NCBI GenBank assembly: GCA_029259545.1
Contig: JAPHEE010000012.1
Coordinates: 1-37,036, forward strand
Length of the DNA: 37,036 bases
DNA from: Candidatus Alkanophaga volatiphilum
Lineage (GTDB): Archaea; Halobacteriota; Syntropharchaeia; Alkanophagales; B39-G2
Direction: 5' to 3'
Numbering within the stretch: the stretch's first letter is position 1; each line of letters begins with the position of its first letter. The position numbers and the translations under genes were made by a program. The notes below the pieces were generated by a model that saw only the letters and a program-made list of their open reading frames with translations, ran no database searches and was not told where the DNA came from. Below are positions 1 to 7,254 of this stretch, piece after piece.

Positions 1-289
1 GTTCAACGAATTTGCTTCTTGATAACCATATTGCGTCTATATATCTATTAGTTAAATTGCAAAATTTATTAAGCATGTAACTTCTCTTAAGATTAGATAC
101 ATCTCTTAATCTGTCTACAACTATCAAAATATCTACATCTGGGTGTATTTTTCTTTTATTAATTTTAGTTCCAGTAACAACAGAACCATAGACCATTACT
201 AGACAAGGATTAAATAAAGCTATTAGGGAATCTAAATCAATAACACTCTCAGTAAGCGTATCTTGATATGCGCGATACTTACTTTCCAT
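1..289 (-). CDS. Minimal nucleotidyltransferase (MNT/Pol-beta-like), 3' end beyond window
   Basis: The minus strand is open from an ATG at 289 to the window edge, so about 96 residues are visible and the C-terminus is missing. The start follows GGTGACGAAA, a plausible ribosome binding site. The sequence shows the Pol-beta nucleotidyltransferase signature: Gly35-Ser36 after a hydrophobic strand (VMVYGS), then Asp51 and Asp53 in HPDVDILIVVD. Such short proteins transfer a nucleotide to a protein or small molecule, and many are the MNT antitoxin half of HEPN-MNT toxin-antitoxin pairs. A HEPN partner would lie outside the window, so that role is inference. The gene is AT-rich like the helicase operon at 458-4142 and is separated from it by a palindromic GC-rich element. 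A stand-alone aminoglycoside-type or CCA-type enzyme cannot be excluded from this fragment. Confidence 0.7.
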   Translation of the reverse strand, partial: MESKYRAYQDTLTESVIDLDSLIALFNPCLVMVYGSVVTGTKINKRKIHPDVDILIVVDRLRDVSNLKRSYMLNKFCNLTNRYIDAIWLSRSKFVE

Positions 290-311
290 TTTCGTCACCA
301 CAGTCCATGGC

Positions 312-446
312 GTATAACGGTTGGCGGGTATCTGAAGTCCGAGCGAAGCGAGGATTTGGGCGAAGGCGTAAGCCGAAGCCAGATACCTGCTTGTTGTCCG
401 AGTGCGATAGCAACGAAGCGAAGCGGAGAGTTGCGGGCGACGGACA
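312..446. repeat. Palindromic GC-rich spacer element (attC-like layout)
   Basis: This 135-bp GC-rich block sits between two AT-rich genes and contains two nested inverted repeats. The first pairs GCGGGTATCTG (324-334) with CAGATACCTGC (380-390), one mismatch, and is bracketed by GTATAAC (312-318) and GTTGTCC (393-399). The second pairs TGTCCG (395-400) with CGGACA (441-446) and GCAAC (410-414) with GTTGC (430-434). The order AAC, inverted arms, GTT recalls integron attC sites, but the RYYYAAC and GTTRRRY cores match only in part. Parts of the block (393-400 and 431-443) recur inverted at 4185-4208 on the other side of the helicase operon. It may be a recombination site or a mobile-element end. 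Confidence 0.55.
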
Positions 447-457
447 TTTTAATCACC

Positions 458-3214
458 CTATATTTCATAATGATGTTTCGAATAGCTGTTTTCCGTAGTT
501 TTTAGATTTCTTGATCTTAAATCTTTTATGATATTTTTAATAGATTCCTCTATCAGCGCTTTTTCTCCCTCTGTTGTTGTAATCAATTTGTCAATAATTC
601 CTAATTTCTCGTAAATCTGTTTTTTATAAAACCATCTATTCCTGTAGGCTCTATACTCCATTAAACCTAGATGCTCCCAATAATAATTTTCGCCATTTAT
701 AATTAACTTAAAATCTGGCTTTATACGGTATTCCAACCAAAAATCCTCCGGCTCATATTCGAATTTAATTCCCGATTCATCTAATATACTTGCAATAATA
801 TATTCAATTTTGGATTTAAGTTCAATTATTCTTCCATCTTTTAATCGCAATGAATATGCTCTTAAGGGAGATTTTTTAAACTCAAATAATAGTGTCTTGC
901 GCTGTTCTATTGCGGAATTATCATAGATTCTACTTAAGATTAAAGGAAGTTCTTGTTTCAAGTCTTCGTTTACAAGGACATATAATTGGTTCTTGGCTCG
1001 TGTAAGAGCAGTATACATTAACTCCCTTGTTATGAAGGGAGTTGCTTCAGGAAGTATAAATATTACATTGTCAAAATCACTTCCCTGAGATTTATGAACG
1101 GTTATCGCATACCCCAAATCTATTTTCCTATCTATTTGTAGAAGTGAATGTATTTCATTTTTAATATTAAATATCAGATCTTTAATTTTTTGCCATCCAT
1201 AAGTCTCAAGTAATTCATCTATCTCATCAAAACGGATATACTCTCTATCATCTAAATATCCGATTGATCCATTGGCTAGGGCAAGAATTCTCTCGTCCTT
1301 TTCTCCATCCCTTATTGTGTAATAAATATTTTCTTCGCATATTAGCTTTGTTTGAGGCAAAAATTGAACGTTTCCGTTCATAACAACATTTTGATTAATA
1401 GCCATTGTGCCAAAATTGCCCACTCTTCGTGGCGATATGATTTGGACTCTATCAAGGGATATTTTATTTTGTTCGCCTTTGAAAATCCGACTAAATAGAT
1501 TAAATATGCTCTCTTCTTTTGATTGATGCAACAACGACCTTAAAATATCTACCATCTTACCTTTGATAGACTCTACGTCTGTAAAATAATCGATTTTAAA
1601 AGTTTCATCCTGCTTTTTCAAAATTTGTTCAATTTCTGTGATAGAAGGAGGATCATTCCCTCCAAACAATTCAGTAAGCATACCCAAGCCAGAATCTGGT
1701 GAAAATCTTAAATTGGATTCGAGCCTAACAATTTTGTCCTCCAACTCTTTCTTTCTCAAATAAAAGATAATATCAGCTAAAGGTCTCCCGACACCAATGG
1801 GTGGAAGTTGTCTATCATCTCCAACAAGAATTAAGTGCTTAAGATTATCTATATTGATCATACAAAAAAGAGCACCCAATAAAATCTCATCTACCATCGA
1901 TGCTTCATCGATAATTACAACAGAAGGGTTAAATTTCCATCCCTTTTTTGAGATTTCTAAAAAATCTTTAAACAAATCCCACCTACCAGAGAGAATATCA
2001 GATACCAAATCTGTTAAGCGATATATCTCACGCTTTTTTGTGGGCATATATTGGATATATTCCACAAGACGACGATATAAAAATCTATGAATAGTTGATA
2101 TCTCAATCCTTTTTGATTTAACAAAATCATATAATCCCACATTTTTAATTCTATTTTTAATAACGAGATTTGCTTTTCCAGTAGGGGTGAAAATATAAAT
2201 CGGCACCTTGTTTTCTTCAATGAATTTTTTTACAAGCTCCACGATCGCCTGTGTTTTTCCGCTTCCGGCTTTTCCTGTAAGTATGAAAAGTCCATTGCTT
2301 AAAGCTCCTACATATGCTCTTCTCCTTTCATTAATATTTATCCTGTCCTTAAATTTCCCTTTTTCTTCCTCAATTATTCTTTCCACATATTCGTGATCAG
2401 GTTTGTATTTTTTGCTCGCCAATTTATTTATGACATTCTCTATATGTTCTTCAATTTCCCTTAGCTCTTTCAATTGATAAACAGCATCTTGTAATTCTGT
2501 CTTGATTACGAATCTCTCTTTAAATAGTGTTTCTTTTTCGTAGTCTATTAGCGTTTTCTCATTCAATCTAAACCTCTCATTAATGTAATAAAGAGGATAA
2601 TCTTCAATTCGTTTTAGTATATCACTTCTTACAAGGCAGGAGTCGCCATTTTGAGATGCTGCATCATTGAGGATCTTAACGATTAGCGCTCTAATACGTT
2701 GTGGGGATTGTGCTGAGTATTCTGTACTCCACTTTGCATATCTTACATCTGGGATCAATGCAATATCTATATGATAAAGATCTATTCCGTAATCACTTTT
2801 GTCTATATCCCAAGTGTAAACTTTGTCGTAGCTATATTTTTCAAACAAAATATAGGGATTACTTTTCAATTCATCTAATCCTATTTTACTTAAGATATCT
2901 GCTTTTATATTCTCAAATTGAGGTATCGTTAAATCAAACTGTGAAAGAAACTTTATTTCTTCTAAGTTCTTTTTTATAGCCGTTATAACTTTTATTAATC
3001 GACTGGGGATATTTTCAATATTTTTCACATTCGCTAAAAAGTTGTCAAAGTCCCCGTAGGTATTTCTCACCCACTCTTCAAACTCATTTATAATTGTAGT
3101 TAAAAAATCTTCAGGGTAATCGTACTTCAGATACGTGAACAAGAGATTTCTAAATCCTGGATACCTACCTCTTTCTTTCCAAGCAATGGATAATAACCTA
3201 TCTATTTTTTTCAA
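458..3214 (-). CDS. RecD-like superfamily 1 helicase with C-terminal PD-(D/E)XK-type nuclease domain
   Basis: This 918-aa protein has an uncharacterised N-terminal region (about 1-300), a RecD/AAA_30-type SF1 helicase core and a C-terminal nuclease-like domain. Seen directly: Walker A GKAGSGKT (314-321), Walker B VVIIDEASMVD (432-442), motif III GDDRQLPP (465-472), and the late motifs VHKSQGSDFDNV and YTALTRAKNQLYVL. From about residue 800 there is E804, then KPDF with D834, then YWEHLG with E847, then K864/K865, which fits a PD-(D/E)XK nuclease of the EHLG variety. The start is TTG at 3214, favoured by AGAGGA just upstream, and it overlaps the end of the 314-aa gene by 17 nt, so the two are co-translated. 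The gene is far more AT-rich than the chromosome to the right, which suggests transfer. DNA unwinding coupled to cleavage, perhaps in antiviral defence, is inference. Confidence 0.85.
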   Translation of the reverse strand: MKKIDRLLSIAWKERGRYPGFRNLLFTYLKYDYPEDFLTTIINEFEEWVRNTYGDFDNFLANVKNIENIPSRLIKVITAIKKNLEEIKFLSQFDLTIPQFENIKADILSKIGLDELKSNPYILFEKYSYDKVYTWDIDKSDYGIDLYHIDIALIPDVRYAKWSTEYSAQSPQRIRALIVKILNDAASQNGDSCLVRSDILKRIEDYPLYYINERFRLNEKTLIDYEKETLFKERFVIKTELQDAVYQLKELREIEEHIENVINKLASKKYKPDHEYVERIIEEEKGKFKDRININERRRAYVGALSNGLFILTGKAGSGKTQAIVELVKKFIEENKVPIYIFTPTGKANLVIKNRIKNVGLYDFVKSKRIEISTIHRFLYRRLVEYIQYMPTKKREIYRLTDLVSDILSGRWDLFKDFLEISKKGWKFNPSVVIIDEASMVDEILLGALFCMINIDNLKHLILVGDDRQLPPIGVGRPLADIIFYLRKKELEDKIVRLESNLRFSPDSGLGMLTELFGGNDPPSITEIEQILKKQDETFKIDYFTDVESIKGKMVDILRSLLHQSKEESIFNLFSRIFKGEQNKISLDRVQIISPRRVGNFGTMAINQNVVMNGNVQFLPQTKLICEENIYYTIRDGEKDERILALANGSIGYLDDREYIRFDEIDELLETYGWQKIKDLIFNIKNEIHSLLQIDRKIDLGYAITVHKSQGSDFDNVIFILPEATPFITRELMYTALTRAKNQLYVLVNEDLKQELPLILSRIYDNSAIEQRKTLLFEFKKSPLRAYSLRLKDGRIIELKSKIEYIIASILDESGIKFEYEPEDFWLEYRIKPDFKLIINGENYYWEHLGLMEYRAYRNRWFYKKQIYEKLGIIDKLITTTEGEKALIEESIKNIIKDLRSRNLKTTENSYSKHHYEI

Positions 3215-4142
3215 TGTCCTCTAAAATCTGATAATCTACAATTTGATGTTCTTTCATCTTCTCCACAGATTTTTGAAGATGATATAAAAGATAAATGCAT
3301 TTGTCATGGGATAAATGCATAGACACATACTTAAAATGAGGGATAAGAGTATGTTCTATAACTGGTGTAGATACTTCTTTCAATTTTTTCCATTTCTTCT
3401 CTTCATCCAAACTTTTATCTTCGGCTAACCACTCTAAATATTCATGGAATGGTAATACAAATGCCGTTTTTGGATCAATTCTAATCCTAAATTGCCAAGC
3501 AATTGTAGGGAAATTTCTCATTTTTGGCTCATTACGAATTTTCCTCAGCAATTCTTCAGGAATTTGATATCTTTTAGGCTCTTCTACTTCTTTCACCATT
3601 GCGGCACCCAATAGACAGTATTTATAATCATCACCTGTTATAGGATTACTGTAATTTGCATAAAAGAATACTATAGATTCATTCTCTTTGATATTTTGGA
3701 CATACTTTTTCGCTCTTTCTTCCAGCTCAGGAATAGGTGGATATATTTGGGTAGGGCTTTCATGCTCAAATGACATCAAGAAACACCATGAGAAAAGAGT
3801 ATAACTATCTACATTTTCTTCTAAAGGTGGTACCATACACTGAAAATCTTTACCCCATTTTGTTGAGTGAATAAAAGGGTGCGGATCTTTAATAATGCAT
3901 GTCTCCTCTCCCAGTGCGTTTATACACCAATAGCATGGAGGGAGATAATTATTTTCTCTAATCACTTCGGATATTTTACTGTTCGCAGTTTTTTCCTCTA
4001 CTTCCAGATTTATCCTTTTCTGAATTCTTGGGGAGAGTAAGGAGTAGTTCCCTCTACAATAAAAATTCATTCTAGGATTTTTACAGATTTTTCCATTCCA
4101 TTTATTGTCATGCCAAGCGAATCTCACTGTCAGGTGCTTCAT
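3198..4142 (-). CDS. Unknown 314-aa Cys-containing partner of the helicase-nuclease
   Basis: I do not recognise a named family. The N-terminal third carries the conspicuous string VRFAWHDNKWNG (6-17) and cysteines C20, C29, C70, C73 and C82; C70-x-x-C73 with C20 and C29 could bind zinc. The middle is rich in aromatics and beta-prone segments, and the C-terminal 60 residues look helical and charged. There is no signal peptide or membrane segment, so the protein is probably cytoplasmic. The ATG at 4142 is preceded by a strong ribosome binding site, GGAGGGGAGG, at about 4149-4158. Its 3' end overlaps the helicase start by 17 nt, so the two are an operon and probably act together, for example in recognising or regulating the DNA substrate. 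Both genes share the same AT-rich composition. Confidence 0.8.
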   Translation of the reverse strand: MKHLTVRFAWHDNKWNGKICKNPRMNFYCRGNYSLLSPRIQKRINLEVEEKTANSKISEVIRENNYLPPCYWCINALGEETCIIKDPHPFIHSTKWGKDFQCMVPPLEENVDSYTLFSWCFLMSFEHESPTQIYPPIPELEERAKKYVQNIKENESIVFFYANYSNPITGDDYKYCLLGAAMVKEVEEPKRYQIPEELLRKIRNEPKMRNFPTIAWQFRIRIDPKTAFVLPFHEYLEWLAEDKSLDEEKKWKKLKEVSTPVIEHTLIPHFKYVSMHLSHDKCIYLLYHLQKSVEKMKEHQIVDYQILEDIEKNR

Positions 4143-4161
4143 AATATTACCTCCCCTCCTT

Positions 4162-4177
4162 ATTTTTTATTAAATTT
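4162..4177 (-). promoter_or_regulatory. Probable TATA box of the helicase-nuclease operon
   Basis: On the minus strand an AT-only tract containing TTTAATAAAAAATA lies 20-35 bp upstream of the ATG at 4142, a usual archaeal TATA position. The Shine-Dalgarno sequence between it and the start argues for a short leader. The exact start site cannot be fixed by eye. Confidence 0.4.
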
Positions 4178-4181
4178 TGTT

Positions 4182-4208
4182 AGCCCGTCGCCCGCAATTT
4201 CGGACAAC
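4182..4208. repeat. Inverted copy of the left-hand island border sequence
   Basis: CCGTCGCCCGCAA at 4185-4197 is the exact reverse complement of 431-443, and CGGACAAC at 4201-4208 is the exact reverse complement of 393-400. The left copy has about 30 extra bases between the two blocks. The helicase operon is therefore flanked by an inverted sequence pair, as expected for mobile-element or recombination-site borders. Confidence 0.55.
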
Positions 4209-4211
4209 TTA

Positions 4212-4295
4212 GTATATACGAAATTCGCTTTTTGTTCGGTTTTGGGAAGATATACGAAGTTCATGTATCTTTAATTTTGGCAGTATATACGAACT
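4212..4295. repeat. Three spaced direct repeats of TATACGAA
   Basis: The core TATACGAA followed by A/G/C and TTC or TC occurs near 4212-4225, 4249-4262 and 4282-4295, spaced about 33-37 bp apart. The copies lie between the recombinase remnant and the border sequence, upstream of the helicase operon. They could be recombinase-binding or regulator-binding sites. No function can be assigned. Confidence 0.45.
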
Positions 4296-4335
4296 CATCC
4301 GTCTTTTTCACCTTTAACCATTATATCACGGATTC

Positions 4336-4444
4336 TTATCTCCTCAGATCTTTAGTAGCAACATGAGTATAAATCTCTTTCGTTTTCGAATGCTTAATGT
4401 CCAAGCAGCTCCTGAATGTATCTCAGATCAACCCCGCTTTCGAG
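4336..4444 (-). pseudogene. Remnant of a tyrosine recombinase (XerC/integrase family), C-terminal end, frameshifted
   Basis: Reading leftwards from 4444, the minus strand encodes LESGVDLRYIQELLGH, the region of tyrosine recombinases with the conserved LLGH histidine, and then hits a TAA at 4396-4394. One frame over, it continues as HSKTKEIYTHVATKDLRR and a stop at 4336. EIYTHV contains the catalytic tyrosine. Frames and motifs together show a single shift in a once intact gene. Everything upstream of LESG is gone, because a repeat element (4443-4688) begins exactly there. This is the scar of an integrase beside the AT-rich island and may have mobilised it. Confidence 0.8.
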
Positions 4445-4688
4445 TGAACTCCCTTGCTTACGCAAGGGGCTTCTCCGTTCTTCACGCTGAGGCTTCATCT
4501 GGGAGTTCGGGTTTATAGCTCCCCCATCCCATCGGACTCGTTATCCGATGGGCTATCGTTTGTTTCTCTCTTTTCCCCAAGGGGACGGCATCGGAAACCT
4601 TCCTTTATAGATTCAAAGTAAAGTTTAAAACTACCTCCAAACCCCCACTCCCCTGTATCCCCTCGCTCGCAAGGGTCTTGCAAGCAAC
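4443..4688 (-). mobile_element. Hairpin-ended element, copy G (IS200/IS605-like non-autonomous)
   Basis: On the minus strand the copy starts with GTTGCTTGCAAGACC and a hairpin at 4660-4675. It runs through GTTTCCGATGCCGTCCCC, which matches copy B closely, has a perfect 9-bp hairpin (4528-4552), and ends with GAAGCCCC, a 7-bp hairpin (4451-4468) and AGTTCACT. That ending is typical of IS605-family right ends and omega-RNA 3' scaffolds. There is no transposase or TnpB reading frame. The right end abuts the broken tyrosine recombinase gene, so insertion into that gene is likely. Confidence 0.65.
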
Positions 4689-4699
4689 AGAAAGATAAC

Positions 4700-5335
4700 T
4701 CAAACGGATCTGCAAATTGCTCTCAGTCGATGCTCGAGTCCGGCGTCGGCATCCTTTAAAAGCTGTTTCACCCTCAAATTTATGCTCTTCTCAATGTCGT
4801 TTAGTCTTCTTATGACGGCTTCCACGCTAGTCTTCGCCTCTTCCTTGTCGGGACGGACCTGCGAGTAGTAGGCAGCGGCGAACTCCGGCGAGACTTCAAT
4901 GCCAAAATAATCACGGCGATGAAAGCCCATCAACTCGCTCATCAGCGGCCGGTAAGCACGACGCAACAGCGGCACGTAGATTTTCTCTAGGATCGCTCTC
5001 GTGATTGCATCCTCTGGGAACTCCACCCAGATGCGGCGTTGTGTGACGTCGTATCTCACCTTAGAGCGGACGTCAAGTGCCTTCTTGAAGAAGAAATCAC
5101 AGTCCTCGCCCATGCGGCGGAGCGTGGTGTCGTCGTGCAACCTCGCCTCGATGAGGAAATTGTTCTTGAAAAGTATTTTCACGAGCCTCGTGCCTTCATA
5201 GATGCCATCAAGCTCCTTAATGAGCACAAGGGAAACCTCCCAGCCGATAAGCTCTTCGACTCCCTTTTTTATCGTAGACTCGTCGCTGCCTAGCACCTCG
5301 CCGATGCCCCTGAGAAGCCCACCCATGCTGAGCAT
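4700..5335 (-). CDS. Hypothetical protein, 211 aa
   Basis: I do not recognise the family. The protein looks soluble, with no signal peptide or membrane helix. After a Gly-rich start (MGGLLRGIGEVLG) it has alternating beta and helix segments, a basic central part, and a charged, helical C-terminus from about residue 160. Codon use and GC content match the chromosomal genes, not the AT-rich island. The start may be ATG 5335 or the ATG three codons later at 5326; AAAGGAG lies upstream of both. It is transcribed away from the trm112-like gene, with about 55 bp between them. Its stop lies only 11 bp from repeat copy G. Confidence 0.65.
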   Translation of the reverse strand: MLSMGGLLRGIGEVLGSDESTIKKGVEELIGWEVSLVLIKELDGIYEGTRLVKILFKNNFLIEARLHDDTTLRRMGEDCDFFFKKALDVRSKVRYDVTQRRIWVEFPEDAITRAILEKIYVPLLRRAYRPLMSELMGFHRRDYFGIEVSPEFAAAYYSQVRPDKEEAKTSVEAVIRRLNDIEKSINLRVKQLLKDADAGLEHRLRAICRSV

Positions 5336-5389
5336 GCTTCTTATCTCCTTTGCGCATAGGATTAAAAATAGTAGGTGGAATTTTGGAAT

Positions 5390-5574
5390 ATGAAGAGGAG
5401 CTTGATGGAAATACTCGCATGCCCATTATGTAAGGGAGACCTTGAGCTTGAGGTTGAAGAGGAGGACAGCGACGAGATTATAAAGGGGGCGCTTCTCTGC
5501 CGGAATTGTAATGAGCGTTATCCAATTGAAGATGGAATCCCCGACCTAAGACCGCCGGAGCTGAGAGGAGAAGG

Positions 5575-5578
<4 letters not shown>
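5390..5578 (+). CDS. Trm112-like zinc protein
   Basis: About 62 residues beginning [16 protein letters not shown], the usual opening of archaeal Trm112 proteins, with two Cys pairs, CPLC and CRNC, and the ending [15 protein letters not shown]. Trm112 is a small zinc-binding activator of SAM-dependent methyltransferases that act on tRNA, rRNA and release factor. The start at 5390 is chosen by family resemblance; GTG 5375 and ATG 5405 (behind GAGGAG) are alternatives. The stop overlaps the pyrG start as ATGA, so the two genes are translationally coupled. Confidence 0.8.

Positions 5579-7254
<1,676 letters not shown>

What the first reader, a model, noticed from the sequence alone, without database searches (positions are those of the whole stretch)
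458..4142. Two-gene helicase-nuclease module with an unrecognised partner: candidate defence system
A RecD-like helicase with a C-terminal EHLG-type PD-(D/E)XK nuclease overlaps by 17 nt with a 314-aa protein carrying a C20/C29/C70/C73 set and an odd WHDNKWNG motif. Fused helicase-nucleases with a conserved unknown partner on an AT-rich, recombinase-associated island are typical of antiviral systems, yet I cannot match this pair to a named one.
Basis: partly seen in the sequence, partly recalled or inferred. Interest (0 to 1): 0.75.

Follow-up and report, generated by a model that had tools for sequence, protein, structure and literature searches.

The report
Split archaeal PDC-S68 defence-candidate gene
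The supposed new two-gene system is one known but untested antivirus-candidate gene (a DNA helicase with a DNA cutter and an unidentified recognition module) that in this archaeon is cut in two by a small indel in a run of A's and sits in what looks like an exchangeable integron-type gene cassette.

Summary
The two ORFs exist as described (458-3214 and 3198-4142, minus strand), but they are two halves of one known gene. Both match, end to end, the same PADLOC profile of the single-gene phage-defence candidate PDC-S68 (PDLC05064: partner at model positions 71-362, E 1e-102; helicase-nuclease at 369-1271, E 1e-199). All 18 relatives readable across the junction are single proteins. The window breaks at an A7 run; 6 or 9 A's would give one open frame. 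Relatives sit beside type I, III and IIG/ISP restriction genes, BREX plus Gabija, QatC or SIR2-pAgo, or ride on plasmids and phages. A defence role is therefore likely; no activity test exists here or in the papers I could search. The N-terminal module has conserved C20/C29/C70 and WHD..W.G (C73 is not conserved). A good model of a relative (pLDDT 81) gave no significant fold match; four of the five best weak PDB hits are EVE/YTH domains. My mechanism, a restriction-like helicase-nuclease guided by a (possibly modified-base) reader, is inference. The gene is flanked by attC-like sites in cassette orientation, and its 5' boundary is shared exactly with a relative in another archaeal phylum: integron-type mobility. 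Whether the split copy still works is open.

The parts
3198..4142 (-). N-terminal (presumed recognition) module of PDC-S68, here a separate 314-aa ORF; conserved H3, R7, WHD(10-12), W15, G17, C20, P23, N26, C29, C70
   Evidence: PADLOC PDLC05064 model 71-362, E 1e-102; alignments A1, A5, A9; no Pfam/NCBIfam/PDB sequence match
458..3214 (-). RecD-like SF1 helicase plus C-terminal nuclease-like domain of PDC-S68, 918-aa ORF with TTG start
   Evidence: PADLOC PDLC05064 model 369-1271, E 1e-199; Pfam; alignment A4
965..2320 (-). SF1 helicase core (aa 299-750): Walker A with K320, D436-E437, Q-L-P-P-I-G, HKSQGS, YTALTR motifs
   Evidence: RecD and RecD2 structures 1w36_D and 3e1s by profile
605..826 (-). 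C-terminal PD-(D/E)XK-like nuclease (aa 797-870): SK.E ... PDF ... WEH.G ... K
   Evidence: invariant residues in A4
3205..3211 (-). A7 run (T7 on the plus strand) at which the reading frame breaks; 6 or 9 A's would give one open frame
   Evidence: intact junction in L002 and in 17 further loci
309..399 (-). attC-like recombination site at the 3' end of the gene, same strand as the gene
   Evidence: RNA-type model R1 (this copy is in the training set), dispersed copies, 8-bp stem with compensatory changes
4179..4208 (-). cassette 5' boundary, GTTGTCCGAAATTGCGGGCGACGGGCTAAC, identical 5' of the relative in L003; sequences diverge exactly left of GTTGTCC
1..289 (-). start of a small nucleotidyltransferase-like gene, presumably the next cassette (continues on contig C11)
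   Evidence: exact 127-nt overlap with G000:C11; family by eye only

Best explanation
The pair is one PDC-S68 gene. The protein is a fused anti-invader restriction-type machine: an N-terminal module (C20/C29/C70, possibly metal-binding, and a beta-rich core that may be EVE/PUA-like) recognises a feature of foreign DNA, the RecD-type SF1 motor loads and unwinds, and the C-terminal PD-(D/E)XK-like domain cuts. It most likely backs up resident restriction-modification or BREX systems, possibly against modified phage DNA that escapes them. In this genome the gene sits in an integron-type cassette and is split by an indel at an A7 run, giving two overlapping ORFs. Shown here: family membership, fusion in relatives, intact motifs, defence neighbours in relatives, the frame break, attC-like flanks. 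Inferred: antiviral function, what the N-terminal module reads, order of action, and whether the split copy is functional.
For: Both ORFs match consecutive parts of one PADLOC profile. Fusion in all 18 relatives readable across the junction. 6 or 9 A's instead of 7 give one open frame, and the 9-A version (DIEKKIDRLL) lines up with L002 and L045. Neighbours of relatives: type I RM (L040; L059; L090), type III RM (L041, L049), IIG/ISP directly 5' (L042), BrxC-PglXI-S68-GajA/GajB-BrxHI (L048), QatC (L064, L065), DrmD and TmtA models (L058), HEC-05 (L045), SIR2-pAgo (L044). Ten other window proteins give one PADLOC hit, a generic AAA. Weak fold hits of a pLDDT-81 model: EVE/YTH at ranks 1, 2, 3 and 5 of the PDB list.
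Against: No antiviral test exists in what I could search. No known defence gene was found near the window's own copy. The EVE/YTH hits are not significant (best E 0.2) and profile comparison with archaeal EVE proteins is not significant (P 0.31). PDC-S68 is itself a candidate defined by guilt by association, so neighbour evidence is partly circular. The relatives were gathered by several kinds of search, so the neighbour tally is not an unbiased sample.
Confidence: 0.6

Rival explanations
1. The split is functional: the two ORFs are made as separate subunits (TTG start inside the upstream ORF, translational coupling) and/or joined by transcriptional slippage on the A7 run, so this lineage really has a two-subunit S68.
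For: Both ORFs are otherwise intact with all conserved motifs; a GAGG lies just 5' of the TTG; losing one A or gaining two by slippage would make the full protein. Exact 127-nt overlap of contigs C11 and C12 suggests a short-read de Bruijn assembly, in which an A7 indel error is less likely.
Against: No relative is split at this point. The helicase frame is +1, so ordinary -1 frameshifting on an A7 site would not reach it. TTG start, very short spacing.
Confidence: 0.3
2. The window copy is a decaying, inactive allele of S68, or the break is an assembly error.
For: Two other family members are also damaged: L045 (deletion plus frameshift in the N-terminal module) and L043 (transposase-like ORF between helicase and nuclease parts). 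Homopolymer indels are a common first lesion. The genome is a draft of 89 contigs.
Against: It is the only lesion in 3.7 kb of AT-rich DNA; motifs and nuclease are intact.
Confidence: 0.45
3. It is a DNA-repair or recombination helicase-nuclease carried by mobile elements, not a defence protein.
For: The core is RecD-like; several copies are phage or plasmid cargo without a recognised defence neighbour (L046, L060-L063).
Against: Far below the RecD and RecD2 cut-offs; sporadic distribution, 5 of 394 phylum genomes; scattered phylogeny; repeated adjacency to RM, BREX and others.
Confidence: 0.12
4. On phages and plasmids it acts in competition between mobile elements (superinfection exclusion), with use on chromosomes secondary.
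For: Copies beside phage tail and terminase genes and on plasmids.
Against: Chromosomal copies embedded in BREX and RM operons.
Confidence: 0.25

Closest known systems
PDC-S68 (PADLOC-DB 2.0 single-gene phage-defence candidate)
   Same: Same domain order and whole-length profile match; fused relatives in the same kinds of defence neighbourhood
   Different: Window copy is two overlapping ORFs; it sits alone in an archaeal integron-type cassette array rather than inside another defence operon
RecD / RecD2 (exodeoxyribonuclease V alpha, SF1B helicase)
   Same: Helicase core; last part of the RecD2 HHH domain (E 1e-4, below cut-off)
   Different: Scores far below the equivalog cut-offs; extra N-terminal module and C-terminal nuclease; not part of RecBCD
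Type IV (modification-dependent) restriction enzymes and EVE/YTH reader fusions
   Same: Reader plus motor plus nuclease layout; weak EVE/YTH fold hits
   Different: Reader identity not significant; SF1 RecD motor instead of a GTPase or SF2 motor; no substrate known
Gabija, Hachiman (helicase-nuclease defence systems)
   Same: Helicase and nuclease jointly used against invading DNA
   Different: No TOPRIM/OLD or HamA subunit; one polypeptide; in L048 S68 lies next to a Gabija pair, so it is not Gabija
Archaeal integrons / CALINs (PMC9668308)
   Same: attC-like sites in cassette orientation, clustered arrays; archaeal cassettes were already known to carry toxin-antitoxin and phage-resistance genes
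   Different: No canonical IntI above cut-off here; the recombinases beside such arrays in relatives seem to lack the IntI-specific insert

Membership tests
PDC-S68 | Match to the PADLOC PDC-S68 profile along its length | tested here: met
   PDLC05064 model 71-362 and 369-1271 covered by the two ORFs
PDC-S68 | Single-gene system (one ORF) | tested here: not met
   Frame break at A7, 3205-3211; 18 of 18 relatives are one ORF. So: a broken or split member, not a textbook one
PDC-S68 | Found embedded in or beside other defence systems | tested here: inconclusive
   Met in relatives; none found near the window's copy
PDC-S68 | Antiviral activity | not testable with these tools
   No paper in the library names PDC-S68
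RecD / RecD2 | NCBIfam equivalog cut-offs | tested here: not met
   180.6 against 310 and 179.3 against 500 bits
Type IV restriction with EVE/YTH-type reader | Recognisable modified-base reader fold | tested here: inconclusive
   EVE/YTH at Foldseek ranks 1, 2, 3, 5 but E 0.2-0.7; hhalign P 0.31
Type IV restriction with EVE/YTH-type reader | Cleaves only modified DNA | not testable with these tools
   needs biochemistry
Integron gene cassette | attC-like folded site 3' of the gene, in gene orientation | tested here: met
   309-399 minus strand; stem with compensatory changes; 12 further sites in G000 outside the training set
Integron gene cassette | Sharp cassette boundary at G/TT | tested here: met
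   Window and L003: 30 of 30 identical right of GTTGTCC, 33% left of it
Integron | IntI-type integrase in the genome | tested here: not met
   No TIGR02249 match in G000; genome 88% complete

The most novel reading that the evidence does not exclude
Archaea of several lineages share an integron-like cassette platform run by a tyrosine recombinase that lacks the IntI-specific insert, and this platform shuttles whole defence genes such as S68 between archaeal phyla; S68 itself is a modified-base-reading helicase-nuclease (a RecD-powered type IV restriction enzyme).
Probability: 0.25. Interest if true: 0.75.

Novelty: new member of a known kind. Interest (0 to 1): 0.42.

Why it matters
It turns an apparently new two-gene system into a specific, testable prediction about a listed but uncharacterised defence candidate: what its N-terminal module reads and whether it rescues restriction-modification from modified phages. 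It also gives a concrete case of a large (about 3.8 kb) defence gene in an archaeal integron-type cassette with the same 5' boundary in two archaeal phyla, which makes cassette-borne movement of archaeal immunity testable.

Tried and rejected
Two-gene module with unknown partner: rejected, the partner is the N-terminal third of a fused protein. RecD or RecD2 proper: rejected by score. Programmed -1 frameshift at A7: rejected, the helicase frame is +1. Zinc set C20/C29/C70/C73: C73 not conserved, so at most three of these Cys (plus a conserved His) could bind metal. First structure prediction (window sequence, 10 rows): pLDDT 51.5, not used. Sequence searches of PDB, Pfam and NCBIfam with the N-terminal module: nothing. 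Comparison with a single EVE protein: nothing. The C11/C12 overlap, checked as possible evidence of homopolymer errors in the assembly: exact over 127 nt, so no such evidence. Rfam on 1-5600: only sub-threshold hits. Whole-helicase PADLOC profiles in genome searches ring for any RecD-like helicase and were read only at full length. Two early literature queries returned nothing or unrelated papers.

Full report
Observation. The minus strand carries ORFs 3198-4142 (314 aa) and 458-3214 (918 aa, TTG start) with a 17-nt overlap, in an AT-rich stretch (GC 0.32-0.34 against 0.46-0.63 beyond about 5 kb). The large ORF is a RecD-like SF1 helicase with a C-terminal SK.E...PDF...WEH.G...K nuclease-like domain. 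K320, D436-E437, D834, E847 and H848 are invariant over eight family members. The small ORF has no Pfam, NCBIfam or PDB match.

What it is. PADLOC profile PDLC05064, the single-gene phage-defence candidate PDC-S68, is covered by the two ORFs in sequence: 71-362 by the small one (E 1e-102), 369-1271 by the large one (E 1e-199). Relatives were collected from genomes, plasmids, phages and viral contigs. In all 18 loci where the junction can be read (L002, L040-L046, L048, L056, L058-L060, L063-L065, L090, L093) it is one ORF; L045 is frameshifted elsewhere, in its N-terminal module. L003 and L049 end before the junction.

The break. The minus-strand junction reads ...GAC ATT GAAAAAAAT AGA TAG. 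With 6 or 9 A's the frame is open throughout; the 9-A version, DIEKKIDRLL, aligns with L002 (EIEKKVERLL) and L045. The helicase frame is +1 to the partner, so standard -1 frameshifting would not join them; transcriptional slippage could. The two contigs that meet at the window's left end share an exact 127-nt overlap, which I read as the mark of a short-read de Bruijn assembly; that makes a plain homopolymer sequencing error less likely but does not exclude it. Whether the split copy works is open.

Neighbours. PADLOC scans and record annotation put relatives beside type I restriction (L040, L059, L090), type III RM (L041, L049), a IIG/ISP enzyme less than 20 nt upstream (L042), BrxC-PglXI-S68-GajA/GajB-BrxHI in an archaeon (L048), QatC (L064, L065), DrmD and TmtA models (L058), an HEC-05 model (L045), SIR2-pAgo plus WYL (L044), and a methyltransferase (L093). 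L056 has what look like HsdM, HsdS and HsdR next door (by eye). Others are phage cargo near terminase or tail genes (L046, L060-L063; by eye). Ten other proteins of the window gave a single PADLOC hit, to a generic AAA protein. The sample is not unbiased, and PDC-S68 was defined by such neighbours (guilt by embedding; PMC12988326 citing doi 10.1101/2024.01.29.577857), so this supports but does not prove defence. PMC12988326 says validation is pending for most such candidates. In the phylum a partner homologue occurs in only 5 of 394 genomes; archaeal copies fall in three places of a tree of 17, which fits horizontal transfer.

Mechanism. In 12 diverse N-terminal modules H3, R7, W10-H11-D12, W15, G17, C20, P23, N26, C29 and C70 (window numbering) are invariant; C73 is not. 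AlphaFold on the window sequence failed (pLDDT 51.5); on a viral relative (L056) with 12 rows it gave pLDDT 81.1 and pTM 0.85. Foldseek against PDB found nothing below E 0.001, but ranks 1, 2, 3 and 5 are EVE/YTH domains (2hd9, 7r5w YTHDF2, 1wmm, 2p5d; that the Pyrococcus and Methanocaldococcus entries are EVE proteins is my own knowledge), and the viral library has an EVE protein at rank 3. hhalign with archaeal EVE proteins is not significant (P 0.31) but aligns the same core, kSLVFFYAk..rRvlVGvgrVk with GDkllIYl..riVgvyeVvS. I therefore propose, as inference, a reader-motor-nuclease enzyme that acts like type IV restriction, backing up RM or BREX. Rivals are listed with their tests; the split being functional and the split being decay are alternatives about this copy, compatible with the family-level explanation.

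Mobility. Window 309-399 (minus) is one of a family of folded repeats in this genome: an 8-bp stem with compensatory changes between AAC and GTT(A) boxes. A covariance model of five copies finds 17 sites in the window's genome (five are the training set), 9 in the genome of L002 and 3 in that of L003, often a few hundred to a few thousand bases apart. In 60 phylum genomes it rings in 20, in clusters, and not in the other 40. The elements sit 3' of the gene on the same strand, as attC sites do. The 5' boundary GTTGTCCGAAATTGCGGGCGACGGGCTAAC is identical in the window and in L003 (Candidatus Aenigmatarchaeota); left of GTTGTCC identity drops to 33%. That is the pattern of cassette insertion at G/TT. 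On contig C11, joined through the 127-nt overlap, two more sites follow, with a nucleotidyltransferase gene between them (PF01909), before what look like ribosomal genes. Integrons in archaeal MAGs, mostly without integrase and with phage-resistance genes among the cassettes, are known (PMC9668308). No IntI was found in this genome. In four relatives, recombinases matching the IntI family below cut-off lie directly beside such arrays, with almost nothing in place of model positions about 179-232; I take this to be the missing IntI-specific insert.

Verdict. Real, a known candidate family, with a split that may be trivial. The function is likely defence and the mechanism untested. Moderate interest, raised by the cassette context and by a testable reader hypothesis.

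Noticed in passing
L129 826-1881 with sites 2252-5722; L130 1164-2081 with sites 3104-6899; L131 (frameshifted recombinase) with site 2700; L132 2861-3850 with sites 1451-2257: In four archaeal relatives a tyrosine recombinase (best but sub-cut-off IntI matches, IntI-specific insert apparently missing; a weak HARP-like N-terminus in L129) lies directly beside attC-like arrays on the same strand: a possible non-canonical archaeal integron platform.
   Followed up: partly
G000 contigs C3, C4, C8, C9, C11, C21, C37, C49, C60, C62; also 20 of 60 phylum genomes: Dispersed and clustered attC-like sites, bimodal between lineages; several at contig ends, as expected if cassette arrays break assemblies.
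   Followed up: partly
window 1-289 and L133 1-222: Contigs C12 (window) and C11 share an exact 127-nt end overlap inside a nucleotidyltransferase-like gene, so the cassette array continues onto C11.
   Followed up: yes
L134 515-2194 and L135 1799-3466: Two similar DUF262-like ORFs (by eye) each lie between attC-like sites in the window's own genome, possibly further cassette-borne restriction genes.
   Followed up: no
L043 9713-15660: Rhizobium plasmid copy of S68 with a transposase-like ORF between its helicase part and its nuclease part.
   Followed up: no
L046 and L047: Two contigs of archaeal genome G187 carry the same provirus-like stretch with S68, in opposite orientation, beside a terminase-like gene (by eye).
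   Followed up: no
L002 579-2117: RNase HII-like protein (PF01351) with a C-terminal PIN-like region, two genes upstream of an archaeal S68; not in PADLOC.
   Followed up: no
window 4207-4300: Three near-direct repeats of TTCGTATAT(A)C just upstream of the cassette 5' boundary; GTATATAC is self-complementary, perhaps a degenerate attC stem.
   Followed up: no
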